The position numbers and the translations under genes were made by a program. Below are positions 3,005-27,647 of a stretch of DNA of 30,220 nt, piece by piece. The stretch's first letter is position 1; each line of letters begins with the position of its first letter. Under the pieces are notes generated by a model. That model did not search any database. It saw only the letters and a program-made list of their open reading frames with translations, and was not told where the DNA came from. Source of the stretch: Bacteroidales bacterium (GTDB taxonomy: Bacteria; Bacteroidota; Bacteroidia; Bacteroidales; UBA932). The DNA lies in the NCBI GenBank assembly GCA_017615445.1, contig JAGAAD010000079.1, forward strand, positions 1-30,220, given 5' to 3'.

Positions 3005-3199
3005 CTCGCTCTACGAGCTCGTAGCGTCCAGAATCTTCGATTCACTGTGGGGCGTACCCCCCAGACCCCCTGCGTCGCTTCGCTCCAGAAGCGTTTTCAA
3101 CATACAGTAAAAGGGCAAATACAACGCCCCTTACGAACGATACAACATACGTCTTGATTGGCTACGACCAATCGCACAGACAAACTCTATATATACGCT
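3005..3199. other. Gene-free stretch after the tRNAs with small palindromes
   Basis: No credible gene is visible. It holds a perfect 14-base palindrome CTACGAGCTCGTAG (3011-3024), a GC-rich patch at about 3047-3085 that in reverse complement resembles part of the miaA insertion (GCAGGGGGT then a G-run), and the hairpin GATTGG...CCAATC (3156-3173). A 10-base match to the miaA insertion (CTTCGATTCA, reverse complement) lies at 3035-3044. Confidence 0.5.
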
Positions 3200-6237: not shown

Positions 6238-6269
6238 TTTGCCTAAGTCGAAGATAATTGTTATATTCG
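6238..6269 (+). promoter_or_regulatory. Promoter of the Oar-type receptor operon
   Basis: TTTG (6238-6241), a 20-base spacer and TATATTCG (6262-6269) match the Bacteroidota consensus with one mismatch in the -7 box. The receptor ATG at 6312 follows after about 35 bases of A/T-rich leader. The promoter is divergent from metK. Confidence 0.6.
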
Positions 6270-6311
6270 CAGGTCGAAGTTGCGAACAAATACTATCTAT
6301 ATTTAGCGTTT

Positions 6312-9770: not shown

Positions 9771-9795
9771 TCATTATTAACCCATAATCAATCAC

Positions 9796-12012: not shown

Positions 12013-12041
12013 TCACAATCAAGACTAAAACAAACAGGAAT

Positions 12042-15000
12042 ATGAAGAATATATTCAAACTTTCCGCACTTGCAGTTCTGGCAGTCGGCCTTCTGGCTTC
12101 CTGCCAGGAGAAGGAGATTGCAGCTCCCGAGGTCGCTCTCGGCGAGACCCACACCTTCACTCTGACATTTGCCCAGCCCGACACCAAGGTGGCCGTGACC
12201 GAAGCCGGTAAGACTACCTGGCAGGCAGGAGACAAGATCCTTGTTCATGGTGAGACCAGCTCAGACAGAGCTGTCGTCACTCTTGCTGCAAGCGATATCA
12301 GCGCCGACGGTAAGACCGCTACCATTTCTTTCTCTGGCGTAAGGCCTTACGACCGTTCTTCGGACAGGGGCTACACCAGCACCTTCTATGCTCAGTATCC
12401 TGCTGAGATTTCCACAGCCGGATCTCTCTACTACTACGCTAAGTTCGACAAGACCAACGATTTCCTTCTTGCCGGTTACAACGAGGGTGACAAGTTTATC
12501 CTCTACAATATGTGCGGCGTCATCAGCTTCAAGTCTGAGGGCGACTTCGACTCGTACACATTCTCCGGTAACAATGATGAGACCGTTGGTTACACTCTGC
12601 TCGCAAGTCGTCTTGCCGGCAAGGGTGCCGACAATGAGCCCGTGCTCGAGTGGAAGTATAGCCACACAAGTGGCCCTCTCACCACAATCGACGGTGTCGC
12701 GACTCCTGGCAAGACTTCATTTGTCTGCCTGCCTCTCGGCGCAGATTTCACCCAGGGCTTTACCCTCACTTTGAAGAAGGGTGATGCAGAGGTGGCAAAG
12801 TTGGTCACAACCAACCCTGTCAACGTAGAGCGCAGCAAGATCCTCCCTCTGGGAGACATCACCGAAAAGCTCGGTCTCAGCGGCACTGGCGAAACAGACA
12901 ACTGGGACTACACCCCTTCAGAGGCCTACCTCTCCGAGGGCAACCTCTGGAAGCCCATCTTCGACGGTAACTTCGATGAGGCTTATGGCGTGATCAGCGG
13001 AGGTGAGGTCAAGTCTATCGCCGACAACGATAATATCAAGAAAGAGAAGTCGACCTATGTCTTTACTTTCCCTGTCGCTACCGAGGGAGAGTGGGGTTGC
13101 TGCAACTTCCTTGCAACCACTGAGGATCATCTCCTCCCGCTGGCCGCAGGCAAGAAGTACAAACTCGCAGTCACTATCGGCTGCACCGCAGACATCCAGA
13201 AGTTCATCTTCTCTCTCCATGACTACAAGTCTGGCGATCCCACCCACGAAGGAGCTTGGAAGACAGATATGTGGGATGCTCTCGTGGCAAACACCCCCAA
13301 GGAGTTCTCGGCCGAGTTCAATTGCGAGGCTGACATGAACGTCGCTTGGACTATCATCCCTCAGTTCGGCACCCCTGCCGGAATGAAGCTCTACATCAAG
13401 GACCTCATCATCGAGGAAGTTAAGGAACCCCTCAAGTTCGCTTGGAGGAACGACACCGTCGTGGAGCAGCAGGTCGGTTACAAAGATCCCGGTGCAGCCC
13501 ACTGGTATATCGATGCCGATAAGGATGTGGACTTCAGCGTCAAGGTTCTCCTCAACAATGTCGAGACCACCGAAGGCGTCACCGTGGAGAAGTTCGAGGC
13601 CGGCGGCGGCCACGTAGCAATCAACTACGCAGCCAACGAGACCCCTGATGAGAAGGTGTGGGACGTTGTGGTCACCACCACCGCTTATGTGGAGCATCCT
13701 GAGCTTCACGGAAAACTCGAGCAGGGACCGTACGAGTACTCGAATCTTGCTAAGCTCAACTCTGACATCATCGCAGCCGGCGACAAGAAGGTCGACCGTA
13801 TTCTCAACATCAGCGCCGACGAGAAACTCTATGTGACCAAGAAAGTTGGCAAGAACGTCTTTGCACAGTCTCGCCACGACTGGTTCACCGGCGGCGTTCT
13901 CTTCTATGAGACAGGTCTTGAGAGCAAGGTGTCCGAGTGCAACACCATCTACGGAAAGTGTGTCGTCACCACCACCACCTACAACGGCGTTCCTGAGATC
14001 ACCAAGGTGACTTACAATGAAGGCGATGTGACCTTCGGTTACGATGGCAACACATGGCCTTGCGAAAAGGTCACCATCGCAGCTCTCGAGGCTGACTACA
14101 TGAAGTATGTCAACGTCAAGACCGAGTTCAACAACAACTACAACGGAGTGACCGTGACCGACGGCTTCGACAAGAACGACCGCAACGGTAAGATCAAGGA
14201 CAGCACCGGCGAAATCGCTCTCTATGTCCAGCTCACTGACGGCACCATCACCGGCCATATCACCGGAACCAAGCTGAACAAGATCATCGCATGGCCTACC
14301 TTCTACAAGACCAACCATCAGATCGGTCTGTGGAGCCAGCCTACCGATGTGAAGAGCATCCCCGGTGTAATCACCGTAGACGCAACTAAGAGCGTTGCCA
14401 TTGGAGCCACCGTCGAACTTGGTGCGACCACCAACAGCACGGCTGCTATCACTTACGCATCCGCGGACGAGAGCATCGCAACAGTTTCTGAGACCGGCGT
14501 TGTCACAGGCGTCGCGGCAGGTACCGTTGAGATTACCCTCTCCGTTGCTGCAAAGGATAAGTATCTTGCCGGTGAGGCAAAGTGCACGGTGACCGTTACC
14601 GACGGATCCGCCCCGGAACCCACCTATGTGGTTGTTTGGAGGGATGATTTTGCAAACGCCACTGGCACATCTGCAATCACAGCTCTTAACGGATCAGTAG
14701 ATGGTTTCACCGGAGCATATGTCGACATCGGAGAAAAAGTCTATGCTATGAACGGAGCTGTCAAACTGGGCGCTGCATCTGCAGCAGGTTCCATCAAGAC
14801 TCCCGCTCTGTCTACCATCACCGGCACAAACGCCACTCTGAGAGTCAGACTTAAGGCTGCAGGCTGGAATAATAAGACCGCGAAACTCGAGGTTCTTACC
14901 AGAAACGGCACTGTTTCCCCTGAGGGACAGGTGGCGATTGATTCCGAAAGCACCATGTCCGGCCAGAATCCTACTATGACAGGAAAAGAGTACACCTGGA

Positions 15001-15101
15001 CGATTACAGGTGCAAGCGCTGAGACTGCTATCCAGTTCACCTCCAACCTCGCAGTTGGAATTGATGATCTCATCATCGAGCAGGTGATTCCTGCAGAGTA
15101 A
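12042..15101 (+). CDS. Large modular lipoprotein with fimbrillin-like N-terminus, jelly-roll-like and Big_2 domains
   Basis: This 1019-residue lipoprotein has its lipobox cysteine at C21. An N-terminal part (about 35-275) resembles fimbrillin-type domains, with the motif TWQAGDKILVHGE (about 59-71). Then come a jelly-roll-like module (about 288-460, WDYTPSEAYLSEGNLWKP), a short Ig-like segment (about 463-555), an OB-like region (about 565-770), a Big_2 bacterial Ig domain (about 776-852, ASADESIATVSETGVVTGVAAG) and a C-terminal jelly-roll or choice-of-anchor-like domain (about 863-1015). It follows the preceding lipoprotein after 29 bases and ends before a strong terminator, closing the receptor operon. 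The jelly-roll-like module closely resembles the second one in the protein at 15226. Binding target unknown. Confidence 0.8.
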   Translation: MKNIFKLSALAVLAVGLLASCQEKEIAAPEVALGETHTFTLTFAQPDTKVAVTEAGKTTWQAGDKILVHGETSSDRAVVTLAASDISADGKTATISFSGVRPYDRSSDRGYTSTFYAQYPAEISTAGSLYYYAKFDKTNDFLLAGYNEGDKFILYNMCGVISFKSEGDFDSYTFSGNNDETVGYTLLASRLAGKGADNEPVLEWKYSHTSGPLTTIDGVATPGKTSFVCLPLGADFTQGFTLTLKKGDAEVAKLVTTNPVNVERSKILPLGDITEKLGLSGTGETDNWDYTPSEAYLSEGNLWKPIFDGNFDEAYGVISGGEVKSIADNDNIKKEKSTYVFTFPVATEGEWGCCNFLATTEDHLLPLAAGKKYKLAVTIGCTADIQKFIFSLHDYKSGDPTHEGAWKTDMWDALVANTPKEFSAEFNCEADMNVAWTIIPQFGTPAGMKLYIKDLIIEEVKEPLKFAWRNDTVVEQQVGYKDPGAAHWYIDADKDVDFSVKVLLNNVETTEGVTVEKFEAGGGHVAINYAANETPDEKVWDVVVTTTAYVEHPELHGKLEQGPYEYSNLAKLNSDIIAAGDKKVDRILNISADEKLYVTKKVGKNVFAQSRHDWFTGGVLFYETGLESKVSECNTIYGKCVVTTTTYNGVPEITKVTYNEGDVTFGYDGNTWPCEKVTIAALEADYMKYVNVKTEFNNNYNGVTVTDGFDKNDRNGKIKDSTGEIALYVQLTDGTITGHITGTKLNKIIAWPTFYKTNHQIGLWSQPTDVKSIPGVITVDATKSVAIGATVELGATTNSTAAITYASADESIATVSETGVVTGVAAGTVEITLSVAAKDKYLAGEAKCTVTVTDGSAPEPTYVVVWRDDFANATGTSAITALNGSVDGFTGAYVDIGEKVYAMNGAVKLGAASAAGSIKTPALSTITGTNATLRVRLKAAGWNNKTAKLEVLTRNGTVSPEGQVAIDSESTMSGQNPTMTGKEYTWTITGASAETAIQFTSNLAVGIDDLIIEQVIPAE

Positions 15102-15120: not shown

Positions 15121-15154
15121 CAGCCCGGCGGTCTCCGTCGGGCTGTTTTTTTTG
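15121..15154 (+). terminator. Rho-independent terminator ending the Oar-type receptor operon
   Basis: CAGCCCG (15121-15127) pairs with CGGGCTG (15139-15145), with inner CGG/CCG pairs, followed by eight T (15146-15153). It begins 19 bases after the lipoprotein stop. Confidence 0.88.
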
Positions 15155-15181
15155 TTTACAGAGAAAGATTTGGTAACTTTG
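15151..15181 (+). promoter_or_regulatory. Canonical promoter overlapping the preceding terminator
   Basis: TTTG (15151-15154) is formed by the end of the terminator T-tract. A 19-base spacer and TAACTTTG (15174-15181) complete a perfect Bacteroidota promoter. The ATG at 15226 follows with a leader of about 40 bases. Confidence 0.8.
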
Positions 15182-15225
15182 AGGACACTAACGCACATTA
15201 ACAACCACATTAATAACAACCGACA

Positions 15226-17205
15226 ATGAAAAAATTCCTGTCTTTTTTAGCAGTTGCAGCGCTTGCTGTTTTTGCTTTCAATGCTTGTGAGCAGGATCCG
15301 GTCCAGACCGATATTCCTCTTGAAGGAATCTCAGTCGCCCCGGCTTCGCACTCTCTCAAAGTGGGTGAAACCGTCGTCCTCACGGCCACCTATAACCCCC
15401 AGGACGCTTCCGTCAAACCGGAGATCCTCTGGTCCTCTTCGAAGCCGGAAGTTGCCACCGTGGACGCTCGCGGAACCGTCACCGCAGTCGCGGCCGGTGA
15501 AGCGGAGATAGTGGCCACGGCGGACAAGTTCACCGCCAAATGCGTCATCACCGTCACATCGGACGAAGTCGTCCCTCAGGACAGCTGGGACTATACCCCC
15601 GGTGCGGCTTATGGCCTGGACGACAACCTCTGGAAGGCTGTGGATGCCGCGCACACTCTCGCTTGGTATTACAACCCGAACTGGGCGGGCGAGAAGCCCG
15701 CTCCTGAAGTGACGTTCAAGGAGTCCACCTACAAATTCACCATTCCGGACGACACCAGCGGAGACTGGCAGGCCCAGATCTGGATCGTGCCGAGCACGGA
15801 CCTCATCCTGGACGCCACAAAGACCTACACCTTCACCTGCAAGGTAGGTGCGACCAAGGAGACTCCCGTTTTCTTCAAGATGTATGAGAAGGGCGTTGAC
15901 TGGCCTCTCAGCTTCGAGTCTGCCACTAACCCCCGTCTGACGGTGGGCCCTGATGCCATTCTTGAAATCAAGGCCGAGGACTTCGTCCCTATCACCACCC
16001 CTCAGAGCCTGCTGATCGATCTCGGCGGCGCCGCTGCAGGGACCACGGTCTACATCAAGGACATCACCCTTGTGGTTACCGGTGACGCACCCGCTCCGCA
16101 GCCCGAGGACACCTGGGACTACACCCCTAGCGCAGAGTATCTGGCTGAGACCAACCTCTGGAAGCCTCTCTTCGACGGCAACTTCGATTACATCTACGGT
16201 GTGATCACAAACAATCAGGTTGTGGACATCACCGCCGCCTCGAACGTGCAAAAGAAAGAGTCCACCTACAAGCTCACTTTCCCGGATGCCACGGAAGGCG
16301 AGTGGGGCTGCTGCAACTTCCTTGCGCCCACCGCGGATCATCTCATCCCTCTTGCCGCCGGCAAGAAGTACAGACTCTCGGTGACCGTGGGCGCCACTGC
16401 CGCCATCCAGAAGTTCATCTTCTCGCTTCATGACTATAAAGCCGACGCAGATAACCGTGAAGGCGAATGGAAGACTGATATGTGGGACGCTCTGGAGGCA
16501 AACACCCCCAAGAAGTTCACCGCCACCTTCGATTGCACTGCCGATATGAATGTCGCGTGGACTATCATCCCTCAGTTCGGCACTCCCGCCGGAATGGTCC
16601 TCTACATCAAGGATCTCATCATCGAAGAATTGGTCCCGTCCGTCCCTGCGGAATTGGCCGGAACCTACATGGTGACCAATCTGAAGATACTTGGAGGCCT
16701 CTACACTACCAAGATCGAAGAATTCAAGGATAAGTCCTGGGAGTGGAATTCTTCCATCAATAATGAGTACGACAACCTGCTTGTGGTGGATGCCGACGAT
16801 TGCACTGTGGATTATCAGGCCGGCGCTGACGGAAAGTATTGGGACCGCATACTGGTGGCGGGAATGAATAAATTAGAGACCGGAGAATTGGATCTGAGCG
16901 CCAACTTCGACCAACTGCCTCATGAGAAGGTACCCCTCAGCGTTGATATGACCACTGGGACCGTTACCATCGGTGGTACGGTCACAGCGCAAGCTTATTT
17001 GCCTGGGGATTACACTCTCAGCAATGATTGGTCAAGCACCACGGGTTCGATCTCTGTCCCCGCAGGTTCGATTGCCCTGGCTTTCAAGTGCGCGAATATG
17101 CCTCAGGATCAATACACCTGGACTGACGATTGGCTCTATAAGGATTTCGACCGCTTTGTGATTCATCCTTTCGCCTACATAATGATCTTCGCGAAGCAGG
17201 AGTAA
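15226..17205 (+). CDS. Modular lipoprotein: Big_2, two jelly-roll-like modules, unknown C-terminal domain
   Basis: This 659-residue lipoprotein has its lipobox at FNAC21. Domains: a Big_2 Ig domain (about 31-112, WSSSKPEVATVDARGTVTAVAAG), two tandem jelly-roll-like modules (about 121-286 and 297-470, both opening WDYTP), and a C-terminal domain (about 475-659) that I do not recognise. The second module is nearly the same as the one in the protein at 12042 (shared GEWGCCNFLA, QKFIFSLHDYK, AWTIIPQFGTPAGM); the first is more diverged. The gene has its own promoter and terminator, so it is a monocistronic paralogue between two operons. The modules resemble carbohydrate-binding jelly rolls, but the ligand is not known. 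Confidence 0.82.
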   Translation: MKKFLSFLAVAALAVFAFNACEQDPVQTDIPLEGISVAPASHSLKVGETVVLTATYNPQDASVKPEILWSSSKPEVATVDARGTVTAVAAGEAEIVATADKFTAKCVITVTSDEVVPQDSWDYTPGAAYGLDDNLWKAVDAAHTLAWYYNPNWAGEKPAPEVTFKESTYKFTIPDDTSGDWQAQIWIVPSTDLILDATKTYTFTCKVGATKETPVFFKMYEKGVDWPLSFESATNPRLTVGPDAILEIKAEDFVPITTPQSLLIDLGGAAAGTTVYIKDITLVVTGDAPAPQPEDTWDYTPSAEYLAETNLWKPLFDGNFDYIYGVITNNQVVDITAASNVQKKESTYKLTFPDATEGEWGCCNFLAPTADHLIPLAAGKKYRLSVTVGATAAIQKFIFSLHDYKADADNREGEWKTDMWDALEANTPKKFTATFDCTADMNVAWTIIPQFGTPAGMVLYIKDLIIEELVPSVPAELAGTYMVTNLKILGGLYTTKIEEFKDKSWEWNSSINNEYDNLLVVDADDCTVDYQAGADGKYWDRILVAGMNKLETGELDLSANFDQLPHEKVPLSVDMTTGTVTIGGTVTAQAYLPGDYTLSNDWSSTTGSISVPAGSIALAFKCANMPQDQYTWTDDWLYKDFDRFVIHPFAYIMIFAKQE

Positions 17206-17225
17206 AATACCTCAATAAACATCTT

Positions 17226-17257
17226 CAGCCCGACGGGAAAACCGCCGGGCTTTTTTA
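17226..17257 (+). terminator. Rho-independent terminator
   Basis: GCCCG-a-CGG (17228-17236) pairs with CCG-c-CGGGC (17242-17250) with one internal mismatch and loop GAAAA, followed by six T. It starts 21 bases after the lipoprotein stop and closely resembles the terminator at 15121. Confidence 0.85.
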
Positions 17258-17288
17258 TTGCCGATGACAAAAAGATTTGTTAAATTTG
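17257..17288 (+). promoter_or_regulatory. Promoter of the nuclease operon
   Basis: TAAATTTG (17281-17288) matches TAnnTTTG, with ATTG (17257-17260) 20 bases upstream as a weaker -33 box directly after the terminator T-tract. The ATG at 17325 follows. No other good promoter or terminator is apparent from here to the window end. Confidence 0.65.
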
Positions 17289-17324
17289 AAAGCTATTGAT
17301 AACAATAACTTAACAACACACATA

Positions 17325-19325
17325 ATGAAACTCAAAAACTTATTTCTGGCAGTGTTCGCAGCTGGTGTCGCACTCGTTGGCTGCGACCCCGAAACCCTTC
17401 TGACCGAAGTGTGGGAGGCAGACGGCATCCCCAGTGAAATCACTATCACCAAGGCCGGCGGAAGCCAGACAATCCGGCTCACTTCCTCCATCGATTGGAA
17501 GATTCGTGGAGTGGAGAACGCAGCAGACTGGCTGGATGTGCAGGTAGACGGCGAGTCCATCACTTCGCCCAACACCACCATCAGCGGCGGAAGCGCGGCC
17601 CGCGAAGTGGTCCTCTCCGCCCTTGCAAACACTGGAACAGACCGCTCAGTGGATCTTACCCTCTTTGCGGATTTGAAACACAAAGTGTCTGTCAAGGTCA
17701 CCCAGGAAGGTGATCTCGGAGACGGCATCGCGAATGTGACAGTCGCCCAGCTTCTTGAAAACCCTGTAGAGGGAAATGTCTACCGCCTCAGCGGAAAAGT
17801 GAGCCGTTTCAGCGCGTCTTACTGCAGCTTCGACCTCACTGACGACACCGGAACAATCTACGTCTATTCCGTGGACGCAGATTCCAAGGCCAAATACACG
17901 GACGTCATCAAGAATGGCGGCAAGATCACGATCCACGGCGAGTACAAATGGTTCGCAGACAAGAGCCAGCACGAAATAGTGAATGCCGTGATCGAGGAGT
18001 ACGACGGCGGAAATGCCGCAAATCCGGACGACGCGACAGACGCGACAGTCGCAGATTTTATCAAGGCGGCAGACGGATCGAAGTACTATCGTCTCACCGG
18101 AACCGTCAGCGGCTTCAGCGACAAGTACTTCAGCTTCGATCTCACGGACGCCACCGGAACCATCTATGTGTATTCGGTCACGGACGCATCCAAGACCGAG
18201 TGGAAAGACAAGGTCAAGAATGGTTACAAAGTGGTCATCAGAGGCCAGTATGAGTACTATGCGGCGAAGAGCCAGCACGAAGTGGTGAACGCTATTATCG
18301 ACTCCGTGGAGGAGGCTCAGGCGGAGAAAGTCACGGCCACAGGCCTTGTGATTGCCGTCTCGAAGGTCGGCTTCCTGATCAGCACTGAGAGCGGTATCGT
18401 CTATGTCTACGACAGCTCCATCGCAGTCAGCGTCAAGGTGGGTGATAACGTCACCGTCAACGGAGACAAGACCACCTACAACGGCGTGGATGAGGTCGAA
18501 AAGTACACAGTGACTGTGAATTCCAGCGGGAACGCAGTTCCTGCGGCTGAGCCCACCGTGCTGGATGCCGCGGCATTCGACAAATACGAGACTCTGTTCG
18601 GCCTCGTTCAGTTCAGCGGAAAGCTCGTCAAGAGCGGAAACTACTACAATGTGAAGGTGAAGGATGCGACCCGCACCGGCAGCCTCTCGAACCCCGTTTC
18701 CGTTTCTGAAGATCTCCTTAACAAATGGGTGGATGTCACCGGATACTTCGTGGGCATCAGCGGCAGCTCATACTTCAATGTTATCGTTTCGGAACTCGCC
18801 CTCAGCGAAGATCAGCACGAAGATGAAAACCAGGAGCCCGAAGGAGCCACAGTAGGCGAGAATGAGGTAGGATACGAACTCACCACCGCTGAAATTGTCG
18901 CGGCTTTTGCTTCCAGCGATCAGACTAAAGACACCTACGGAGACTACACTATTACCAGTTCCACGGGTAATTGGACTGGTAATATGAACACCAAGAAAGG
19001 CCTTGCTTTCATTCAGCTTCGCAATAAATCCGGTGCGCATCTTAAATCTCCGGAATTCTCTTCGAATATCAAGAGAATCGTTCTGAGAATGAATGAGAAG
19101 ACAGTTGTTCGCACTATGTATGCCGTTCCGGCCGACACTCAGATTCCCACATCCAGTGACAACTATACCTCCAGTCTTTGGAGCAATAGCCTTGGAACCG
19201 TTTCGACCAAAGGAGGAGAAGAGACTGTGGTGATATCTGTAACCGGGACGAACAAGAGTTTCACTCTCATCGCCGGTAACGGAGCAGTTTATATCGACAG
19301 CATCCTCGTAATCTGTGAGAAATAA
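17325..19325 (+). CDS. Tandem OB-fold lipoprotein with BACON domain, leader of the nuclease operon
   Basis: This 666-residue lipoprotein has its lipobox at LVGC20. After a BACON-like domain (about 35-128) come four OB-like repeats: about 135-226 (VTVAQLLENPVEGNVYRLSG), about 240-327 (ATVADFIKAADGSKYYRLTG), a shorter one about 333-400, and about 411-493 (TVLDAAAFDKYETLFGLVQFSG). The first two are close copies, sharing FDLTDxTGTIYVYSV and KSQHExVNAxI. The C-terminal domain (about 515-666) looks like a jelly-roll or choice-of-anchor fold. Its stop lies inside the next gene (11-base overlap), which encodes a nuclease, so the two are coupled. OB repeats next to secreted nucleases (as in Bacillus YhcR) suggest nucleic-acid binding at the cell surface; this is inference. 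The start at 17325 follows the promoter; the in-frame ATG at 17277 overlaps it. Confidence 0.82.
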   Translation: MKLKNLFLAVFAAGVALVGCDPETLLTEVWEADGIPSEITITKAGGSQTIRLTSSIDWKIRGVENAADWLDVQVDGESITSPNTTISGGSAAREVVLSALANTGTDRSVDLTLFADLKHKVSVKVTQEGDLGDGIANVTVAQLLENPVEGNVYRLSGKVSRFSASYCSFDLTDDTGTIYVYSVDADSKAKYTDVIKNGGKITIHGEYKWFADKSQHEIVNAVIEEYDGGNAANPDDATDATVADFIKAADGSKYYRLTGTVSGFSDKYFSFDLTDATGTIYVYSVTDASKTEWKDKVKNGYKVVIRGQYEYYAAKSQHEVVNAIIDSVEEAQAEKVTATGLVIAVSKVGFLISTESGIVYVYDSSIAVSVKVGDNVTVNGDKTTYNGVDEVEKYTVTVNSSGNAVPAAEPTVLDAAAFDKYETLFGLVQFSGKLVKSGNYYNVKVKDATRTGSLSNPVSVSEDLLNKWVDVTGYFVGISGSSYFNVIVSELALSEDQHEDENQEPEGATVGENEVGYELTTAEIVAAFASSDQTKDTYGDYTITSSTGNWTGNMNTKKGLAFIQLRNKSGAHLKSPEFSSNIKRIVLRMNEKTVVRTMYAVPADTQIPTSSDNYTSSLWSNSLGTVSTKGGEETVVISVTGTNKSFTLIAGNGAVYIDSILVICEK

Positions 19326-20505
19326 TAAATACATACTCGCCCTCGCGGCGATTTTCGCGGTCGCCTCTTGCGAGCTGATCAACCCGCAGGATCCGGACGG
19401 CGGCTCTTCGAGCACAGTCTCAAAGAACTCCCTTTCGGTGACTAATAACCCCGTCTCGAACGGTGAGGGAACCCAGTTCCTTCTGGTGGAGGCGAAGGGA
19501 GAGTGGACGCTGTCGCTGGATTTCGGCGAAGCCGAGGAAGAATGGCTGACCGTGTCCGCTGAAAACGGACGCCCGGGCAGCAGGAAGCTGGTGATGGCGT
19601 GGGGAAAGAACGAAGGCGAAGATCCGCGGACCTGCCGCCTCACCCTCGCGGTGGGATCGGACAGCCAGTCGCTGGATTTCGTGCAGAAAGGGAAGTCGGT
19701 GGTCAACCCGCGCCCGATAGAGGGCCTGAATCCGGACCCCGTGCCCGGTTGGCTCGAGCTCCCGGCGACGAACAACCCGGACCTGTACTTCTTCACGCAC
19801 GACATGACCGTGGGCGGGAAGACTATGCGCAATTATTCGTTCTACTTGGATCCTCAGGCCTGCCTGGCGATCTGGGTGGCCTACCCGCTGAATCCCGGCC
19901 TCTACGGCAGCGGCTCCCGCTCGGACGCATGGGCCCTGGATCCGAAGGTGCCCCGCGAGTACCAGCCCGTCCTCTTCAGCGGCTTCAAGCCCTCCGGGAA
20001 CTACGACCGCGGCCATCAGCTGCCTTCGGCGGACCGCTTGCACGCCGGCGCGAATGAGCAGACGTTCTATGGCACGAACATGACTCCCCAGAGGGGAGCG
20101 CTGAACCAGAGAGCGTGGGCGACCTTCGAGGGAATGGTCCGGACATGGTCTTCCAGCTTTGACACCCTCTATGTGGTGACCGGCTGCGACCTCGAAGGCG
20201 CGACTCAGGTGGCCTACGACAACGACGGCAAGTCCATCCCGGTGCCGGTGGGATACTTCAAAGCCCTGCTGGGCCTGAAGAAGAGCGGCACGATCGGAAA
20301 CACCGCGAAGCAGGGAGGGTACACCGCCATCGGTTTCTATTTCAATCACGAAGCCTATTCGGACTCCGAAATTATGAATCAGTCCATGACCATCGACGAA
20401 CTTGAATCCATGCTGGACATAGACTTCTTCCCGAACCTGGAGGCCAAGTTGGGCACAGACCTGTACAACAAAGTTGAATCGACCACCGACACCTGGTGGA
20501 AATAA
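19315..20505 (+). CDS. DNA/RNA non-specific endonuclease lipoprotein
   Basis: A 396-residue beta-beta-alpha metal nuclease of the Serratia NucA/EndA type, which cleaves DNA and RNA without sequence preference. The catalytic DRGH is at 231-234 (YDRGHQLPSADR), with H234 as general base. GTNMTPQRGALNQRAWATFE follows, with N264 the likely Mg ligand and E272 spaced exactly as in Serratia nuclease. The N-terminus has a lipobox at VASC19 and a BACON-like domain (about 38-126) before the catalytic domain (about 150-390). The protein is therefore probably anchored in the outer membrane rather than released. The start overlaps the preceding gene by 11 bases. All active-site residues I can check are present. 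Substrate in vivo (extracellular DNA or RNA) is inferred. Confidence 0.93.
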   Translation: MRNNKYILALAAIFAVASCELINPQDPDGGSSSTVSKNSLSVTNNPVSNGEGTQFLLVEAKGEWTLSLDFGEAEEEWLTVSAENGRPGSRKLVMAWGKNEGEDPRTCRLTLAVGSDSQSLDFVQKGKSVVNPRPIEGLNPDPVPGWLELPATNNPDLYFFTHDMTVGGKTMRNYSFYLDPQACLAIWVAYPLNPGLYGSGSRSDAWALDPKVPREYQPVLFSGFKPSGNYDRGHQLPSADRLHAGANEQTFYGTNMTPQRGALNQRAWATFEGMVRTWSSSFDTLYVVTGCDLEGATQVAYDNDGKSIPVPVGYFKALLGLKKSGTIGNTAKQGGYTAIGFYFNHEAYSDSEIMNQSMTIDELESMLDIDFFPNLEAKLGTDLYNKVESTTDTWWK

Positions 20506-20513
20506 TCGAAAAG

Positions 20514-21569
20514 ATGAAAAAAATATTTTACGCCATTTCGGTGTTTCTCCTCATTGCGCTGAATGCAAACGCCCAGACGCATATAATCGGGTTCTACAAC
20601 CTGGAGAATCTCTTCGACATCTACGACGACCCGGCGAAGAACGACAACGAATATCTCCCCACCGGCTCGAACAAGTGGACACAGGAAAAGTATGACAAGA
20701 AAGTCCACAATATGGCCCGCGTAATCCGCGCCATGAGGGACGACAACAAAATGTGGCACACTATCCTCGGCGTCAGTGAGATCGAGAACAGGCTCGTGCT
20801 CGAAGACCTGGTGGCCGATCCGCAGATTGCCGATGCGAACTATCAGATAGTGCACTACGACGGTCCGGACCGCCGTGGTGTGGACGTGGGCCTTCTCTAC
20901 AATCCGAAGAGGTTCAAGTATCTGGACAGCGAGAGCATTCCGTTCGATTTCAACAGCACCATCGATTTCTCGGATGTGGACACATCGTATTTCAAGACCC
21001 GTGACATCCTGATGGTCCACGGCCTGATAGACGACGAGCATTTCGCCTTCTATGTGACCCACCTCCCTTCCAGGATAGGCGGCAAGGGCGGAAACCTCCG
21101 CAGCCGCGGCGCCGAGATAATCTACAACCACAGCCGCCTGATGGAGAAGAAGTATCCCGGAATCAAGATAGCCGTCATGGGTGATATGAACGATAACCCC
21201 ACGGACGAGAGCCAGACTGTCTGGCTGCACGGAAAAGAGAAACCGGAAGAGGTGACCCAGGAGGATTTCTTCGATCCGTTCATCCGCCTTCTGAAGGACG
21301 GCTACGGCTCGCTGGCCTATCAGGGCGTGTGGAACATCTACGACATAGTCCAGGTGAACTACAACATGCTGAACGCCCCCAACGGAGGCTACAAACTCCA
21401 GCAGATCAAGCTGAACCGCAAGAAGTACTACGGCCGCGTGTTCCACAAGGACTTCATGACCCAGCAGACCGGTCAGTACAAAGGAACCCCCTTCCGTACC
21501 TTCTCCGGCGGCTCCTTCATCGGAGGTTATTCAGACCACTATCCCACGTATATCGTAATTAAGAAATAA
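20514..21569 (+). CDS. Secreted endonuclease/exonuclease/phosphatase-family enzyme
   Basis: This 351-residue protein has a signal peptide (1-20, ending NANA) without a lipobox, so it is periplasmic or secreted. It carries EEP (DNase I-like) motifs: FYNLENLFD (27-35, N29), GVSEIEN (86-92, E89 as metal ligand), DRRGVDVGLLY (119-129), THLPSR (182-187, H183), GDMNDNPTD (223-231) and the terminal GGYSDHYP (337-344). The DNase I fold includes nucleases and phosphodiesterases, and the FYNLENLFD opening is typical of Bacteroidota secreted members. It starts nine bases after the endonuclease stop; an upstream in-frame ATG at 20496 lies inside that gene. A plausible role is trimming oligonucleotides produced by the endonuclease, but phosphatase or lipid substrates are not excluded. 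Confidence 0.9.
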   Translation: MKKIFYAISVFLLIALNANAQTHIIGFYNLENLFDIYDDPAKNDNEYLPTGSNKWTQEKYDKKVHNMARVIRAMRDDNKMWHTILGVSEIENRLVLEDLVADPQIADANYQIVHYDGPDRRGVDVGLLYNPKRFKYLDSESIPFDFNSTIDFSDVDTSYFKTRDILMVHGLIDDEHFAFYVTHLPSRIGGKGGNLRSRGAEIIYNHSRLMEKKYPGIKIAVMGDMNDNPTDESQTVWLHGKEKPEEVTQEDFFDPFIRLLKDGYGSLAYQGVWNIYDIVQVNYNMLNAPNGGYKLQQIKLNRKKYYGRVFHKDFMTQQTGQYKGTPFRTFSGGSFIGGYSDHYPTYIVIKK

Positions 21570-21573
21570 CACA

Positions 21574-24519
21574 ATGAAAAGACTGTTTACAGCAGCTGCG
21601 GCTCTGCTTCTCTCCGTGCTTGTTTTCGCCCAGACCGGCGGAATCAAGGGCACGGTGGTGAGCCGCGCGGGCAGAGTGCCGGTCTCCGGCGCTGAAATGA
21701 CCCTCGCGCAGAACGGCAGAGTCCTCGCCGAACTCAGTTCCGGCCAGGACGGAGCGTTCCTCATCGAGGGCCTTTCGGACGGAGTCTACGAACTGACTGT
21801 CAAGGCGGACGAATTCTCGGACCTCACCGTGTTCGTGACCGTGGACAAAGGTTATATTAAGGACCTCATCTTCGTGTCGCTGACTCCCGCCGCAAGGATT
21901 CAGGAGGCGGACGAAAGCAACTTCGCCGAGTTCGACATGGACGATTCCGGTTACTCGGACGCGCCGACTCTTCTGCTCGGTTCGAACGACGTCTACACTA
22001 ACATCGCCGGCTTCGGCTTCAGCTCGATCCGTTTCAAAAACAGAGGTTACAATTCTGAAACTCAGGACGTCTACCTCGCAGGCGTGAAGATGAACGACGC
22101 CATCACCGGTTACTCACCGTTCTCCCTTTGGAGCGGTCTCAACGAAGCCATGCGCTCGAAAGACACCACCATCGGCCTTGAGACGGCCGACGAGGGCTTC
22201 GGAGGCTACAACGGCGTGACTAACCTGCACGCAGTGCCGATGAGCGTCCGGACGGGCTGGCGCTTCTCCGTGCTCAGCAACAGCGCCTTGTACCGCCTGC
22301 GTCTTATGGCATCCTACGCCTCGGGCGAGATAAAAGACGGCTGGAGCTATGCGTTCAACGCTTCCGTCCGCGCCGGTGGAAACGACTGGATCGAAGGTGT
22401 GTACTACCGCTCTTTCGCCTACTATTTCGCCGTGAGCAAGAAGCTGGACGACGAAACCAGGCTGAGCCTCGTGACCTTCGCCACACCCGGTCAGAGAGGT
22501 GCGCAGAACGCCAGCACCCAGGAAGTCTACGACCTCATGGGCGACAACATGTACAACAGCAACTGGGGCTACCAGAATGGCAAGGTGCGCAACTCCCGCG
22601 TACGCCACACCTTCGAGCCCATCACCTTCCTCAAGTATGAGTACAAGCCCGAGGCGATGCCTCTGACCGTGAACGCCACCCTCCTCTGGAGGACGGGCTT
22701 CAACGGTTACACCGCCCTGGACTGGTACGACGCCATGGACCCGCGTCCGGACTACTACCGCAACCTCCCGAGCTACTACTACATGGAGGACGAGGACTAC
22801 AACCGCGTCAATCAGGACAAGTACGATTGGACCATGTATGCTTGGACCCACCGCGGAGCTGAGTACCAGAACTACCAGCACTTGAACTGGGACCGCCTCT
22901 ACAATGTGAACTACAACAACCCGGAAGGCCGCAGCAAGTACGCCCTCGAGGAGCGCCATGTGGACCAGAACGACCTGCAGTTCGCGGCCAACGCGAAGTA
23001 CAGGGTCAGCGAGGCCCTCACCGTGAACGGTGGAGTGGACATGCGTCTGAACCGCACGGAAAACTACAAAAAGATGAACGATCTCCTCGGCGGTCAGTAC
23101 TTCCTGAACATAGACAGCTTCGCCGAGCGCGATTTCGCAGCGAACGAAGCCCTTCTCCAGAACGACCTGAATTACTACAGGGCCCACGGAACTGCCGAGA
23201 AGATCACCAAGGGCGGCAAGTACGGCTATGATTACCTCGCTCAGATCCGCGTGGCGGACCTGTGGGGCAACGGCGTCTTCAAGCTCGGAGCTCTCAGCGC
23301 CAGCGCCGCAGCGAAGGTGGGTATGACCTCCTTCTGGCGTGACGGTCTGGTCCGCAAGGGCCTCTTCGCCGGAGCCAATGCCGACGGCTCCCACATCTAT
23401 GCGACTGACATCAACGGTCAGCTGATAGACCTCACCGCCCTCTCGAACGGCCAGACCTCCTACGGCAAGTCGGACAAGGTGAAGTTCCTGACCTACGCTG
23501 CGAAAGCCAACGTGTCCTACGACCTGTTCGGCAACAGCCGCGTCAGCCTGAATGTGGGTTATTTCAACGACGCGCCCACCTTCAACAACAGCTTCATCTC
23601 GCCCCGCACGCGCAACACCATCGTGGATAATCTCACCACCCAGAAGACCTTCTCGGCCGACCTGAACTACCAGATCGCATCCGAGTGGATCAGCGCCCGT
23701 GTGACCGGCTTCTACACCAAGATAATGGACCAGACGGACGTGATGAGTTTCTACGACGACTCACAGCAGAGCTTCACCAACTTCGCCATGACCGGCATCG
23801 ATCAGCGCCACATGGGAGTCGAGCTCGGAGTGAAAGTCCCTCTGCCCCTCAAGGGCCTGACCCTTAGCGGCGTGCTCAGCCTTGGTGAGTACATCTACAC
23901 CTCGACCCCTCACATGGTCCAGACTGTGGACAACAGCGCCGAGGTCGTTCGCGACGACTCCGTGCCCTACTGGATGGAGCATCCGGTCTATGTGCCCACA
24001 GGCACCACGGCCGACGGCCTTCCCATCTACGCCGAGAATGAGGACGGCACCTTCAAGGTGGACCACATGCAGAAGCACTATGTCCCCAGCACCCCTCAGC
24101 TCGCCTCGGAGATTGCTCTTAACTACCGCACGAACAGCTACTGGTTCTTCGAACTGAACGGCCAGTACTTCGACAGGGCATATCTGGACATGAACCCTCT
24201 CTACCGCACCAGCACCGCTCTCAGGGGCGCCGAATCCAACCCGGCCATCATCGAATACATGGCGGGTCAGGAGAAGTTCAACGCAGCATTCCTGCTGAAC
24301 GCTTCGGCCGGCAAGAGCTGGTCCATCCAGCGCAAGTACTATCTGGGCTTCTCGCTGAATGTGAACAACATCCTGAACAACAAGGAAGTCAAGACCGGCG
24401 GCTACGAGCAGACCCGTCTGATCAGCAGCGTGGGCAAGGACCGTTACTACCGTTTCGATCCCAAGTACTTCTACATGCAGGGCATGAATTATATGTTGAA
24501 CATCTACTTCAGATTCTAA
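21574..24519 (+). CDS. TonB-dependent receptor with carboxypeptidase-regulatory domain
   Basis: This 981-residue outer-membrane protein has a signal peptide (about 1-19, ending VFAQ), a carboxypeptidase-regulatory-like domain (about 22-105, GGIKGTVVSRAGRVPVSGAEMTL), an acidic linker (ADESNFAEFDMDDSGYSD, about 114-131) that may contain the TonB box, a plug (about 132-240, SSIRFKNRGYNSETQDVYLAG) and a 22-strand-type barrel ending MNYMLNIYFRF with terminal phenylalanine. It is preceded after four bases by the EEP enzyme and followed after four bases by a DUF5689-type lipoprotein. No SusD gene is present. I infer that the receptor imports products of the nucleases, with the lipoprotein as possible lid or capture subunit. 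Confidence 0.9.
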   Translation: MKRLFTAAAALLLSVLVFAQTGGIKGTVVSRAGRVPVSGAEMTLAQNGRVLAELSSGQDGAFLIEGLSDGVYELTVKADEFSDLTVFVTVDKGYIKDLIFVSLTPAARIQEADESNFAEFDMDDSGYSDAPTLLLGSNDVYTNIAGFGFSSIRFKNRGYNSETQDVYLAGVKMNDAITGYSPFSLWSGLNEAMRSKDTTIGLETADEGFGGYNGVTNLHAVPMSVRTGWRFSVLSNSALYRLRLMASYASGEIKDGWSYAFNASVRAGGNDWIEGVYYRSFAYYFAVSKKLDDETRLSLVTFATPGQRGAQNASTQEVYDLMGDNMYNSNWGYQNGKVRNSRVRHTFEPITFLKYEYKPEAMPLTVNATLLWRTGFNGYTALDWYDAMDPRPDYYRNLPSYYYMEDEDYNRVNQDKYDWTMYAWTHRGAEYQNYQHLNWDRLYNVNYNNPEGRSKYALEERHVDQNDLQFAANAKYRVSEALTVNGGVDMRLNRTENYKKMNDLLGGQYFLNIDSFAERDFAANEALLQNDLNYYRAHGTAEKITKGGKYGYDYLAQIRVADLWGNGVFKLGALSASAAAKVGMTSFWRDGLVRKGLFAGANADGSHIYATDINGQLIDLTALSNGQTSYGKSDKVKFLTYAAKANVSYDLFGNSRVSLNVGYFNDAPTFNNSFISPRTRNTIVDNLTTQKTFSADLNYQIASEWISARVTGFYTKIMDQTDVMSFYDDSQQSFTNFAMTGIDQRHMGVELGVKVPLPLKGLTLSGVLSLGEYIYTSTPHMVQTVDNSAEVVRDDSVPYWMEHPVYVPTGTTADGLPIYAENEDGTFKVDHMQKHYVPSTPQLASEIALNYRTNSYWFFELNGQYFDRAYLDMNPLYRTSTALRGAESNPAIIEYMAGQEKFNAAFLLNASAGKSWSIQRKYYLGFSLNVNNILNNKEVKTGGYEQTRLISSVGKDRYYRFDPKYFYMQGMNYMLNIYFRF

Positions 24520-24523
24520 GCGT

Positions 24524-25648
24524 ATGAAAAAGTCTATTATTGCAATGTTCGCCCTTGCGGCGCTCGTTTCCTGCCAGTCTCTGAAGGAAGAGTTCCAGCC
24601 TGTTCTGACACTTAAATATCAGAATCCTCCGGCATACGAGAGGAGCATCCCTGAGACCACTCACACAATCGCACAGCTGGTCTCGAAGTACGTTCCCGAG
24701 AAGCCCATGGTCATCAACGAAGACATCGTTATCTCCGGAATAGTGAGCACCACGGACCAGCCCGGTAACTTCTACAAAAGTTTCTTCATCCAGGACGAGA
24801 CCGGCGGAATTGAAATCAAGGTCGGAAAGAACAGCCTCTACAACGACTACCTGCCCGGCCAGAGGGTTTCTGTCCTCTGCCGCGACCTCACCCTCGGCAT
24901 GTACGGTTACAAAACCGGTAACTACGGCGGAATGGGTATGGCCCAGATCGGTTTCGCAGATCCTTCGGGCACCTACGAGACCTCTTATCTGGAGTCGCAG
25001 ATGATTATCAACGACCATATCTTCCGCGGAGAGATGGAAGGCAAGGTGACCCCCGTGGTCGTGACCTCGGCCTCTCAGCTGCCGGACGCCAAGACCGCCA
25101 CTCAGGCTACCCACAACCTCGTGGGCAAGCTCGTGACCCTCAAAGGCCTCAAGTTCGCGAATGAGAACTTCGTTCTTCTCTATCTGGACAGCACCAAGGA
25201 CAAGAAGGCGTACTCTAACCGCGTGTTCCTTTCGGATTCGAACGGACTCGGAAAGTACGGCGCCACTCACGGCATCACCACCTGGGCAATGTCCGAGACC
25301 AAGATGAAGGAGCACCTCCTCGCCGGCGACTGGGACGACGCCAAGGTGGGCAGCGGAAGCACCTTCCTCAAGGATGACGCAGGCAAAGACGTCACCCTCG
25401 GAGACCTCAAGGGCGACGGCACCTATCCGACCGTGGAGAAGGCGGCCTACAGCGTGAGCCAGTACTTCAAGCTCGGAGGCACCGAGATTCAGATCCGCAC
25501 CAGCGGTTTCTGCAAGTTCTGCGACGTGGAGATCGATCCCGCCGTGCTGAGCGGCAGCAAGACCATCAGCGTCACCGGAATCCTCAGCCTCTATCAGGGC
25601 AGCATTCAGATATCAGTAAACTCCCTCGACGACTTCGTGGTAGAATAG
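24524..25648 (+). CDS. DUF5689-type OB-fold lipoprotein, likely receptor partner
   Basis: This 374-residue lipoprotein has its lipobox at LVSC17. Residues about 45-270 match the DUF5689 pattern as I remember it (HTIAQLVSKY..., then an OB-like barrel with DIVISGIVSTTDQPGNFYKS, FIQDETGGIEIKV and LPGQRVSVLC). A second OB-like element closes the protein (KTISVTGILSLYQGSIQISV, then NSLDDFVVE). DUF5689 genes are frequently next to TonB-dependent receptors in Bacteroidota, but their biochemistry is not established. It lies four bases after the receptor and one base before the peptidase. In context it may present nucleic-acid fragments to the receptor, much as SusD does for glycans. The domain name is a recollection to be confirmed by profile search. 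Confidence 0.8.
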   Translation: MKKSIIAMFALAALVSCQSLKEEFQPVLTLKYQNPPAYERSIPETTHTIAQLVSKYVPEKPMVINEDIVISGIVSTTDQPGNFYKSFFIQDETGGIEIKVGKNSLYNDYLPGQRVSVLCRDLTLGMYGYKTGNYGGMGMAQIGFADPSGTYETSYLESQMIINDHIFRGEMEGKVTPVVVTSASQLPDAKTATQATHNLVGKLVTLKGLKFANENFVLLYLDSTKDKKAYSNRVFLSDSNGLGKYGATHGITTWAMSETKMKEHLLAGDWDDAKVGSGSTFLKDDAGKDVTLGDLKGDGTYPTVEKAAYSVSQYFKLGGTEIQIRTSGFCKFCDVEIDPAVLSGSKTISVTGILSLYQGSIQISVNSLDDFVVE

Positions 25649-25649
25649 T

Positions 25650-27647
25650 ATGAAAAAAGCGTTAGCACTCCTCGTAATGGCAGCATCCCTCACAGCTTGT
25701 CATCAGAATCCCTTCCTCCAGGAATGGGACACCCCGTACGGAATTCCTCCGTTCGAGAAGATAAAAGTCTCCGATTACATCCCCGCCGTCAAGGCCGGAA
25801 TCGAGCAGCAGAAAGCCGAAATAGACGCCATAGTGGCGAATCCGGAAGCACCCACTTTCGAGAACACTATCGCCCCGCTGGAGCTCAGCGGCAGCATCCT
25901 TTCGAAGGTGGTGGGCGTGCTCTACAACGTCAGCGAGACGGACCAGACTCCCGAGCTGGACGCAGTGCTTGAGGAGGCGATTCCGCTTATGTCCGACCAC
26001 TCCGCCGAGATTTCCTTCAACAAGGGCCTCTACAAGAGAGTGGCGGCAGTCTATTATGCGGACCAGAGCGGCCTCACCCGCGAGCAGCAGATGGTGCTGA
26101 AAAAGCACTTCGAGGGTTTCGAGCGTGACGGTATCGGTCTGCCCGAAGACCTGCAGCTCAGGCTCAAGAACATAGACAGCGAGCTGGCTGTGAAGACTCA
26201 GAAGATAGGCAACAACATCCTCGCCGAGAGCAATGCCTTCAAGGAGAAGTTCGGCATCAGCGTGAGCGAGTATCCCACCGCGATGACCACCACGGAAGAC
26301 CGTGAGCTTCGCAAGGCCATGTTCGAAGCCTACACTACTCGCGGCCACCACGGCAACGAGAACGACAACTGCGCCCTGCTGCTTGACGTTCTTCGCCTGC
26401 GCGCCCGCAAGGCTTCGATCCTGGGCTACCCGGATTTCGCAAGCTACCAGCTCTCGAACAAGATGGCCGGCGATCCCAAGACGGTGGACAATTTCCTTGC
26501 GGAGATCATGGCCGCCGCAGTCAAGAGCGCGAAGGCCGAGATCTACGACATGGAGAAGGTTGCAGGCCACGAAATCGAGCCCTGGGACTGGTGGTACTAC
26601 GCCGAGAAGGTCCGCAAGGCCAAATATGACCTGGACGACGACCAGATCCGCCCGTACTTCAAGATAGACCGCGTGGTGAACGGCATCTTCACTGCCGCGC
26701 ACACTCTCTACGGCATCAATGCCGAACTGATCGAGGGCGTGCCTTCCTACAACCCGGCAGTCGTGAAGACCTATAAGATCACCGACGCCGACGGCGCGCT
26801 GGTGGGCATCTTCACCACCGACTATCACCCCCGCAGCAGCAAGCGCGGCGGTGCGTGGATGAACAACATCCGCGACCAGTATGTGGACGCCGAAGGCAAC
26901 GAGATCCGCCCGATAATTGTGAATGTGGCCAACATGCCCGAGTACCTGACCGTGGACGACGTCCAGACGGTGTTCCACGAGTTCGGCCATGCCCTGCACG
27001 GCCTCCTGACCAAGTGCCACTACCCGAGCGTGTCCGGCACCAGCGTCACCCGCGACTTCGTGGAGATGTTCTCGCAGTTCAACGAGAACTGGGCCTTCCA
27101 GCCCTGGCTGCTCGAGCAGTATGCCGTGAACGACGCCGGCGAGGTGATCCCGGCCGAGCTTGTGGCGAAGATCAACGGAGCCCTCAAGTTCAACCAGGGC
27201 TTCATGACCACCGAGCTGGCAGCCGCCTCGATCCTGGATATGAAATGGCATGAGCTCAGCGCCATCCCGGAGAATGTGGACCCCGCCGCCTTCATAGACG
27301 AGTTCGAGGCGAAGGTCTGCAAGGAGATGGGCCTTATCAAGGAAATCGTTCCGCGCTACCGCACCACGTATTTCAACCACATCTTCTCGAGCGGCTACAG
27401 CGCAGGCTACTACGGCTATCTCTGGGCCGAGGTCCTGGACAAGGATGCCTTCAGCATCTTCGAGAAGGAGTGCGTGGGTCCGGACGGACAGTGGGATATG
27501 GACAAGACCGTGCAGCTTGCCGGCAAATTCAAGGCGACCTTCCTCGAGAGGGGAGGCGGCGAAGAGCCGATGACGCTCTACAAGTCGTTCGCAGGCCGCG
27601 AACCCGACTCCAAGCCTATGCTCAGGGGCCGTGGACTTATTAATTAG
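25650..27647 (+). CDS. M3-family peptidyl-dipeptidase lipoprotein (Dcp-like)
   Basis: This 665-residue zinc metallopeptidase has the thermolysin-like motif HEFGHALH (from residue 443, with H443, E444 and H447) and the downstream M3 regions [18 protein letters not shown] and [21 protein letters not shown]. Family members remove C-terminal dipeptides or cleave oligopeptides. The lipobox LTAC17 suggests attachment to an envelope membrane, in contrast to cytoplasmic Dcp of E. coli; lipoprotein versions occur in Bacteroidota. It starts one base after the DUF5689-type lipoprotein stop and so belongs to the same transcript. A peptide-degrading enzyme is not an obvious partner of nucleases; it could process peptides from nucleoprotein or simply be co-located. 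gpmI starts eight bases later. Confidence 0.93.

What the first reader, a model, noticed from the sequence alone, without database searches (positions are those of the whole stretch)
17325..25648. Candidate extracellular nucleic-acid utilisation operon
Five adjacent genes combine tandem OB-fold lipoprotein, surface-anchored DRGH endonuclease, secreted EEP-family enzyme, TonB-dependent receptor and DUF5689-type OB lipoprotein, with 1-11 base gaps or overlaps. The logic mirrors a Sus-like locus: bind, cut at the surface, trim, import. Parts of this neighbourhood recur in Bacteroidota by my recollection, but the assembled pathway with OB proteins as capture subunits is not a well-defined system to my knowledge.
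Basis: inference. Interest (0 to 1): 0.78.

Follow-up and report, generated by a model that had tools for sequence, protein, structure and literature searches.

The report
Probable TonB-powered DNA uptake operon
A gut-type Bacteroidales genome carries five adjacent genes that probably form a port for pulling DNA through the outer membrane together with two DNA-cutting enzymes; the port's two core parts look like a pair already shown to be essential for DNA uptake in a related bacterium.

Summary
The five genes are real, intact and in the stated order and form a conserved operon: where flanks allow, DUF5689 78/78, EEP nuclease 79/80, Endonuclease_NS 76/76 and the OB-lipoprotein slot 64/67 in 80 related loci. 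The core is wider: strong receptor and strong DUF5689 matches fall in the same 28 of 198 Bacteroidota genomes, adjacent in 27; EEP is the commonest further neighbour, mostly divergent. Endonuclease_NS and the OB lipoprotein are lineage-specific additions. No Riemerella sequence was obtained, so orthology is inferred. Best reading: a TonB-energised nucleic-acid import port with a surface nuclease and a probably periplasmic nuclease, used here mainly for feeding on DNA, possibly also for transformation. Against: acidic OB lipoproteins, no salvage gene among 17 window proteins scanned, and a Riemerella phenotype that could be indirect. New variant of a known kind.

The parts
17268..17290 (+). Candidate Bacteroidales-type promoter (TAAATTTG fits a TAnnTTTG -7 element; consensus recalled), closely similar to the stretch before 15226
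   Evidence: pattern scan (site at 17281); sequence. No chance estimate made, not tested.
17325..19325 (+). Lipoprotein with tandem OB folds (666 aa; lipobox LVGC)
   Evidence: PF01336 36.5 bits, PF13742 35.1 bits, both over cut-off. Of 22 rows of alignment A4, 22 match PF01336 and 19 match BACON at E<=1; the lipobox Cys is invariant in the 22 rows. pI 4.60.
19315..20505 (+). Lipoprotein nuclease: BACON-like domain plus DNA/RNA non-specific endonuclease (DRGH at residues 231-234; lipobox VASC)
   Evidence: PF01223 123.5 bits. In 76 orthologs the H of RGH and the N, E and R columns taken as catalytic (recalled) are 76/76; the D of DRGH is 41/76.
20514..21569 (+). Endonuclease/exonuclease/phosphatase-family nuclease, signal peptide I, probably periplasmic
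   Evidence: PF19580 304.8 bits over residues 25-351 of 351. In 79 orthologs: HLPS 79, GD[MF]ND 79, SEIEN-type 73, YNLEN 71, SDHYP 54; lipobox-like match in 4 of 78.
21574..24519 (+). TonB-dependent outer-membrane transporter with CarboxypepD_reg domain, 981 aa
   Evidence: PF13620. BtuB/Fiu/OprC-like barrel and plug fold.
24524..25648 (+). DUF5689 lipoprotein (OB fold, residues 38-178), constant partner of the transporter
   Evidence: PF18942 141.9 bits. OB fold; same 28 of 198 genomes as the transporter; 54.9 bits to the Riemerella-derived profile NF052645. Lipobox Cys invariant in 36 rows.
25650..27647 (+). M3-family (Dcp-like) peptidase lipoprotein, possibly co-transcribed
   Evidence: PF01432 378.4 bits; 1-base gap. 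Follows DUF5689 in 50 of 73 related loci with enough flank, so accessory.

Best explanation
The operon encodes a TonB-energised port for nucleic acid, most likely DNA, plus the enzymes that cut it. Proposed steps: (a) the DUF5689 OB-fold lipoprotein is the surface partner of the transporter [adjacency shown, fold predicted; binding inferred]; (b) the lipoprotein Endonuclease_NS cuts long DNA at the surface, as EndA of the same family does during pneumococcal uptake [family and active-site residues shown; surface location inferred; EndA comparison recalled]; (c) the transporter passes DNA or oligonucleotides into the periplasm, driven by TonB [transporter fold predicted; DNA as cargo inferred from the Riemerella pair]; (d) the EEP nuclease degrades it in the periplasm [inferred]. 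Because a surface endonuclease sits in the same transcription unit, the main use in this lineage is probably feeding on DNA; transformation with surviving fragments is possible, since related genomes also carry ComEC and DprA.
For: Strong receptor and DUF5689 matches in identical sets of 28 of 198 Bacteroidota genomes, adjacent in 27. DUF5689 within 1 kb downstream on the same strand in 43 of 45 distant loci and 57 of 60 loci of the order set; EEP next to the receptor in 28 of 45 and 41 of 60. After receptor (45 of 45 loci), DUF5689 (44) and EEP (29), the most widespread neighbour cluster is in 15 of 45. In R. anatipestifer, markerless deletion of either an adjacent CarboxypepD_reg outer-membrane protein or its DUF5689 partner drops transformation below detection (PMC8459023, Results and Discussion read). 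A tonBA deletion there lowers transformation without an iron-uptake defect (PMC8383284, abstract and passages). Of 8 DUF5689 proteins from other genomes that I scanned next to receptors of this family, 7 match the Riemerella-derived profile NF052645 at 173-226 bits and 5 also carry choice_anch_J, the architecture described for RA0C_RS04920. Both nucleases keep conserved active-site motifs. Secretin was found in 1 of 9 module-bearing genomes.
Against: No Riemerella sequence was obtained, so orthology with RA0C_RS04915/04920 rests on architecture, adjacency and a profile. All NF052645 scores, the window's 54.9 included, are below its cut-off of 475, and the window DUF5689 protein lacks the choice-of-anchor J domain. 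The window receptor is only 28-29% identical to the receptors L148 and L136. OB lipoproteins are acidic (pI 4.60 and 5.19), though the nuclease itself is too (4.68), so charge decides little. In the next locus of the same window an OB/BACON lipoprotein accompanies a different TonB receptor without a nuclease, so OB folds do not mark nucleic acid. In 12 of 45 distant loci, none with EEP next to the receptor, the gene upstream of the receptor belongs to another cluster (C4, an MFS transporter in the one scanned). ComEC and DprA ring in 10 and 11 of 14 control genomes, HHH_3 in 197 of 198 genomes, so their presence says little. No nucleotidase or nucleoside transporter was named among 17 window proteins. 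Flavobacterium johnsoniae is reported as not competent under the tested conditions although it has all homologs (PMC8459023).
Confidence: 0.6

Rival explanations
1. The transporter imports something else (a peptide, cofactor or phospho-compound), and the transformation phenotype in Riemerella is an indirect surface effect; the nucleases are passengers of the operon.
For: The Riemerella gene M949_1556, which gives its name to the profile that DUF5689 proteins match, is cited for effects on antigenicity, pathogenicity and LPS (passages in PMC12566107, PMC6557517 and PMC5399024; the original paper not seen, and whether it is the same gene as RA0C_RS04920 not tested). An M3 peptidase follows the operon in 50 of 73 related loci. 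An MFS-type gene precedes the receptor in 12 of 45 distant loci. F. johnsoniae was not competent under the tested conditions.
Against: A nuclease is the commonest further partner of the receptor (EEP 28 of 45 and 41 of 60), and a second nuclease joined in two different arrangements: codirectional upstream (near loci, L113, L114, L159) and downstream (L208). In Riemerella both genes are needed absolutely, like ComEC and RecA.
Confidence: 0.2
2. The operon is primarily a natural-transformation machine: Endonuclease_NS plays the part of EndA, processing bound double-stranded DNA for uptake towards ComEC.
For: Essential role of the presumed homologous pair in transformation; ComEC in 19 of 20 and DprA in 20 of 20 genomes of the window's relatives; Endonuclease_NS belongs to the same Pfam family as EndA (recalled); no secretin match in 8 of 9 genomes.
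Against: ComEC and DprA ring in 10 and 11 of 14 control genomes. Two nucleases would be expected to destroy transforming DNA. Nothing here shows that this lineage is competent.
Confidence: 0.12
3. Degradation without import of polymer: the nucleases clear extracellular DNA (biofilm, host traps, phage) and the receptor is only co-regulated.
For: Extracellular nucleases are reported as prevalent in Bacteroidota of marine sediments (PMC8289736, passages).
Against: Receptor and DUF5689 stay together even where no nuclease is adjacent. No PADLOC model matches any of the five proteins at E<=0.001 (database of 2023).
Confidence: 0.08

Closest known systems
Riemerella anatipestifer RA0C_RS04915/RA0C_RS04920 natural-transformation pair (PMC8459023)
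   Same: CarboxypepD_reg outer-membrane protein next to a DUF5689 protein in one predicted operon; pair reported as widespread and mostly adjacent in Flavobacteriaceae by that paper.
   Different: Window DUF5689 protein lacks the choice-of-anchor J/DUF5017 domain; the window operon adds two nucleases and an OB lipoprotein; distant lineage; function in the window untested.
M949_1556 family lipoprotein (NCBIfam NF052645)
   Same: The window DUF5689 lipoprotein aligns over residues 5-236 (E 6.3e-15).
   Different: 54.9 bits against a cut-off of 475; no C-terminal domain; so not a member.
Sus-type polysaccharide utilisation loci
   Same: TonB-dependent transporter plus lipoproteins plus degradative enzymes in one operon.
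   Different: No SusD family protein found; nucleases instead of glycosidases; no SusC family match.
EndA/NucA-type DNA/RNA non-specific endonucleases (PF01223)
   Same: Same Pfam family, RGH motif of the active site.
   Different: Lipoprotein with BACON-like domain, in an operon with a TonB-dependent transporter; the D of DRGH varies among orthologs (41 of 76).
ExeM/NucH extracellular nucleases and exonuclease VII large subunit
   Same: The OB region of the first lipoprotein scores weakly with both (NF033681 E 0.00059; TIGR00237 E 9.4e-06).
   Different: No nuclease domain found in that lipoprotein; both scores are far below cut-off.

Membership tests
Riemerella-type transformation pair (TonB receptor + DUF5689) | CarboxypepD_reg TonB-dependent outer-membrane protein | tested here: met
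   PF13620 over cut-off; TonB-dependent transporter fold (model pLDDT 69.1).
Riemerella-type transformation pair (TonB receptor + DUF5689) | DUF5689 protein directly downstream on the same strand | tested here: met
   4-base gap, PF18942 141.9 bits, lipobox VSC.
Riemerella-type transformation pair (TonB receptor + DUF5689) | Choice-of-anchor J/DUF5017 domain in the DUF5689 protein, as in RA0C_RS04920 | tested here: not met
   none in the window protein. Receptor-adjacent DUF5689 proteins of L113, L118 and L131 lack it too (5 of 8 others have it), so it does not define the pair in my survey.
Riemerella-type transformation pair (TonB receptor + DUF5689) | Direct sequence orthology with RA0C_RS04915 and RA0C_RS04920 | not tested
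   Searches found no Riemerella genome in a sample of 397 genomes of one family (nearly the same sample twice); only the indirect link exists.
Riemerella-type transformation pair (TonB receptor + DUF5689) | Requirement for natural transformation | not testable with these tools
   Needs genetics.
NCBIfam NF052645 (M949_1556 lipoprotein) | Score over curated cut-off (475) | tested here: not met
   54.9 bits, profile positions 11-223 of 457.
Sus-type utilisation locus | SusD-family lipoprotein next to a SusC receptor | tested here: not met
   no SusD or SusC family match at E<=0.001 in seven proteins from 15226 to 27647; DUF5689 occupies the partner position.
DNA/RNA non-specific endonuclease (PF01223) | Profile over cut-off and conserved active-site residues | tested here: met
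Exo_endo_phos_3 (PF19580) | Profile over cut-off with EEP motifs | tested here: met
OB-fold proteins | OB fold | tested here: met
OB-fold nucleic-acid-binding proteins | Nucleic-acid binding | not testable with these tools
   Only charge was looked at: acidic, pI 4.60 and 5.19.
Complete nucleic-acid utilisation pathway | Nucleotidase, nucleoside transport or salvage genes in the locus | tested here: not met
   none named among 17 proteins scanned; such genes may lie elsewhere (own genome not held).

The most novel reading that the evidence does not exclude
Bacteroidota move polymeric DNA across the outer membrane through a dedicated TonB-dependent transporter with an OB-fold lipoprotein lid, instead of a pilus/secretin channel, and some Bacteroidales wired this port to a surface and a periplasmic nuclease to feed on DNA, so that feeding and gene uptake share one gate.
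Probability: 0.45. Interest if true: 0.85.

Novelty: new variant of a known kind. Interest (0 to 1): 0.62.

Why it matters
How DNA crosses the outer membrane in Bacteroidota is open, as far as I know. The secretin used by other competent Gram-negatives (recalled) had no match in 8 of 9 module-bearing genomes sampled (drafts, so absence is weak). A conserved receptor/lipoprotein/nuclease module, including gut and rumen lineages, gives a testable candidate, would link nutrient scavenging with horizontal gene transfer, and would give a role to DUF5689.

Tried and rejected
Competence-gene co-occurrence: ComEC 19 of 20 and DprA 20 of 20 relatives, but also 10 and 11 of 14 controls; NamZ_N/DUF1343 19 of 20 relatives and 3 of 14 controls, not surveyed in module-free Bacteroidota; HHH_3 197 of 198 genomes. 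None can link the module with competence. Synteny with recA and comEC, suggested by the close Riemerella locus tags, was not seen within the fetched stretches of the 45 distant loci; a weak test (a RecA motif, and two partial ComEC queries). Solved structures by sequence: no match at E<=0.001 for receptor, DUF5689 or EEP. Foldseek alone gave no DUF5689 match at E<=0.001; the best rows were HIN domains, several with dsDNA, at low TM-scores. Defence: no PADLOC match. Weak T9SS_DNase_Rie match (42.2 bits, cut-off 260) in 12042-15101 is not a nuclease call. The terminator scan found 20 sites against 13.8 (sd 3.3) in shuffles, so single weak sites mean little. Literature (open-access library; lists capped at 20 of 37 and 20 of 64): on Riemerella transformation I saw PMC8459023, PMC8383284 and, in the listing only, PMC7965970; no follow-up on the pair and no paper on TonB-dependent DNA import in Bacteroidota among what was listed. 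Subscription journals were not searched.

Limits: receptor surveys scored only the top 2, 4 or 15 first-look candidates per genome, so counts of receptor-bearing genomes are lower bounds. The 28-of-28 thresholds (receptor >= 916 bits, next genome 274; DUF5689 E <= 1.2e-30, next genome outside the set 3.1e-20) were set after seeing the gap. Relatedness inflates the hypergeometric value of 1e-34.
Full report
What is there. Five + strand ORFs with an 11-base overlap and gaps of 8, 4 and 4 bases occupy 17325-25648. Pfam identifies OB folds, a DNA/RNA non-specific endonuclease, an Exo_endo_phos_3 enzyme, a CarboxypepD_reg receptor and DUF5689. Genes 1, 2 and 5 carry lipoboxes (read from the sequence); by a simple pattern 26 of 33, 53 of 70 and 63 of 77 of their orthologs do, against 4 of 78 for EEP and 1 of 80 for the receptor. 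Downstream, an M3 peptidase lipoprotein, iPGM and an isomerase-like gene follow at 1, 8 and 5 bases. The terminator scan shows no + strand site between 25648 and 30220; two weak ones lie inside the receptor gene, and a strong one at 15121-15145. A candidate promoter element lies at about 17281.

Origin. The nearest receptors in genome contigs lie in Bacteroidales MAGs, many from rumen and gut, including Candidatus Cryptobacteroides (best 80 of 314 confirmed stretches kept, 58-88% identity). The window's own genome is not held.

Conservation near home. Of the 80 loci, each scored only where the flank was long enough: DUF5689 after the receptor 78 of 78; EEP before it 79 of 80 (the miss, L004, has EEP, but its receptor ORF was drawn too long); Endonuclease_NS 76 of 76; a lipoprotein recognised by the OB profile 64 of 67; M3 peptidase 50 of 73. 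The receptor is patchy: 23 of 59 sampled genomes of the family (incomplete MAGs and limited scoring make this a lower bound).

Conservation across the phylum. The near-home profile found the receptor in 46 of 296 genomes at E <= 1e-20 (lower bound). In 45 of these loci (G009 left out) DUF5689 follows on the same strand within 1 kb in 43; L116 has none, and L155 has a receptor frame split in two with DUF5689 after the second piece. EEP is the direct neighbour in 28 of 45: 2 codirectional (L113, L114) and 26 divergent. Of the 17 without it, 12 have a gene of cluster C4 upstream instead, an MFS transporter in the one scanned, L140. Clustering of all neighbours gave receptor in 45 loci, DUF5689 in 44, EEP in 29, and next a cluster in 15. 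With a wider profile, 28 of 198 genomes have a strong receptor and the same 28 a strong DUF5689; 27 are adjacent, G037 is not. Weaker DUF5689 matches occur in many other genomes: 92 of 198 have a match at E <= 0.001. In 188 genomes of the order, 91 have the receptor; of 60 loci fetched, DUF5689 is within 1 kb in 57 and EEP adjacent in 41, one codirectional; L201 and L208, two of the three DUF5689 misses, do have it as the next gene's listing. Endonuclease_NS (score > 150) is nearby in 2 of 45 (L113, L114) and 2 of 60 (L159, L208); L209 has one at 140 bits on the other strand. L208 has a different order (EEP divergent, receptor, DUF5689, OB, Endonuclease_NS), so the nuclease joined in more than one arrangement.

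Function. The key published result is PMC8459023 (Results and Discussion read): in R. anatipestifer RA0C_RS04915 (CarboxypepD_reg, predicted outer membrane) and RA0C_RS04920 (DUF5689 plus DUF5017, choice-of-anchor J) are adjacent, each markerless deletion abolishes transformation, and the authors already proposed that DNA binds 04920 and passes through 04915. PMC8383284 (abstract and passages) adds that a tonBA mutant transforms less without an iron-uptake defect. Of 8 DUF5689 proteins from other genomes that I scanned beside receptors of this family, L117, L133, L136, L140 and L148 match the Riemerella-derived profile NF052645 at 185-226 bits and carry choice_anch_J; L118 (173), L131 (197) and L113 (76) match without that domain; the window protein scores 54.9 over the first half; all are below the cut-off of 475. 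In 19 of the 28 strong genomes DUF5689 has a single match in the whole genome, which makes a second, unrelated pair less likely. I therefore infer, without direct alignment, that the window pair is a distant relative of the Riemerella pair.

What speaks against. The OB lipoproteins are acidic, although the nuclease is too. OB repeats also occur in a neighbouring receptor locus without a nuclease (9796-12012). The Riemerella gene M949_1556 is cited for effects on antigenicity, pathogenicity and LPS, so the transformation phenotype could be indirect. No salvage gene was named among 17 window proteins. Competence-gene presence is uninformative. F. johnsoniae has all homologs but was not competent under the tested conditions.

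Verdict. The operon and its conservation are shown; the TonB-dependent transporter and the OB fold of DUF5689 are supported by models; DNA as cargo is inferred from a probable homologous pair; feeding as the main use here is inferred from the two nucleases in the same transcription unit.

Noticed in passing
6258-15101: A second TonB receptor locus: OMP_b-brl_4 receptor, a BACON lipoprotein with repeated OB-like units (OB seen by eye), and a Big_2 lipoprotein, without a nuclease domain over cut-off.
   Followed up: partly
9796-12012, 12042-15101, 15226-17205: The three lipoproteins share a repeated unit of about 170 residues beginning DYTPSxxYL..NLWKP, in places very similar, that Pfam did not name; seen by eye in the translations.
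   Followed up: no
15160-15182 and 17268-17290: Closely similar promoter-like stretches (AAAGATTTGnTAAnTTTGA) precede two successive transcription units.
   Followed up: partly
L208: Rearranged version in another genome of the order: EEP divergent, receptor, DUF5689, then OB lipoprotein and Endonuclease_NS downstream.
   Followed up: partly
L113:13126-15789 (- strand): The lipoprotein in the OB slot carries a DUF5689 domain (residues 430-633), which hints that slot 1 and slot 5 lipoproteins are related; the L114 lipoprotein of that slot has no Pfam match.
   Followed up: no
L116 and G037: Receptors without an adjacent DUF5689 gene; in G037 the DUF5689 gene is on another contig.
   Followed up: no
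L134-L136, L139, L140, L143, L144, L146, L148, L149, L151, L155: In these 12 loci without adjacent EEP, a gene of one cluster (MFS transporter in L140) lies directly upstream of the receptor on the same strand.
   Followed up: no
2680-2751 and 2931-3005: tRNA-Gln(ctg) and tRNA-Met(cat) genes.
   Followed up: no
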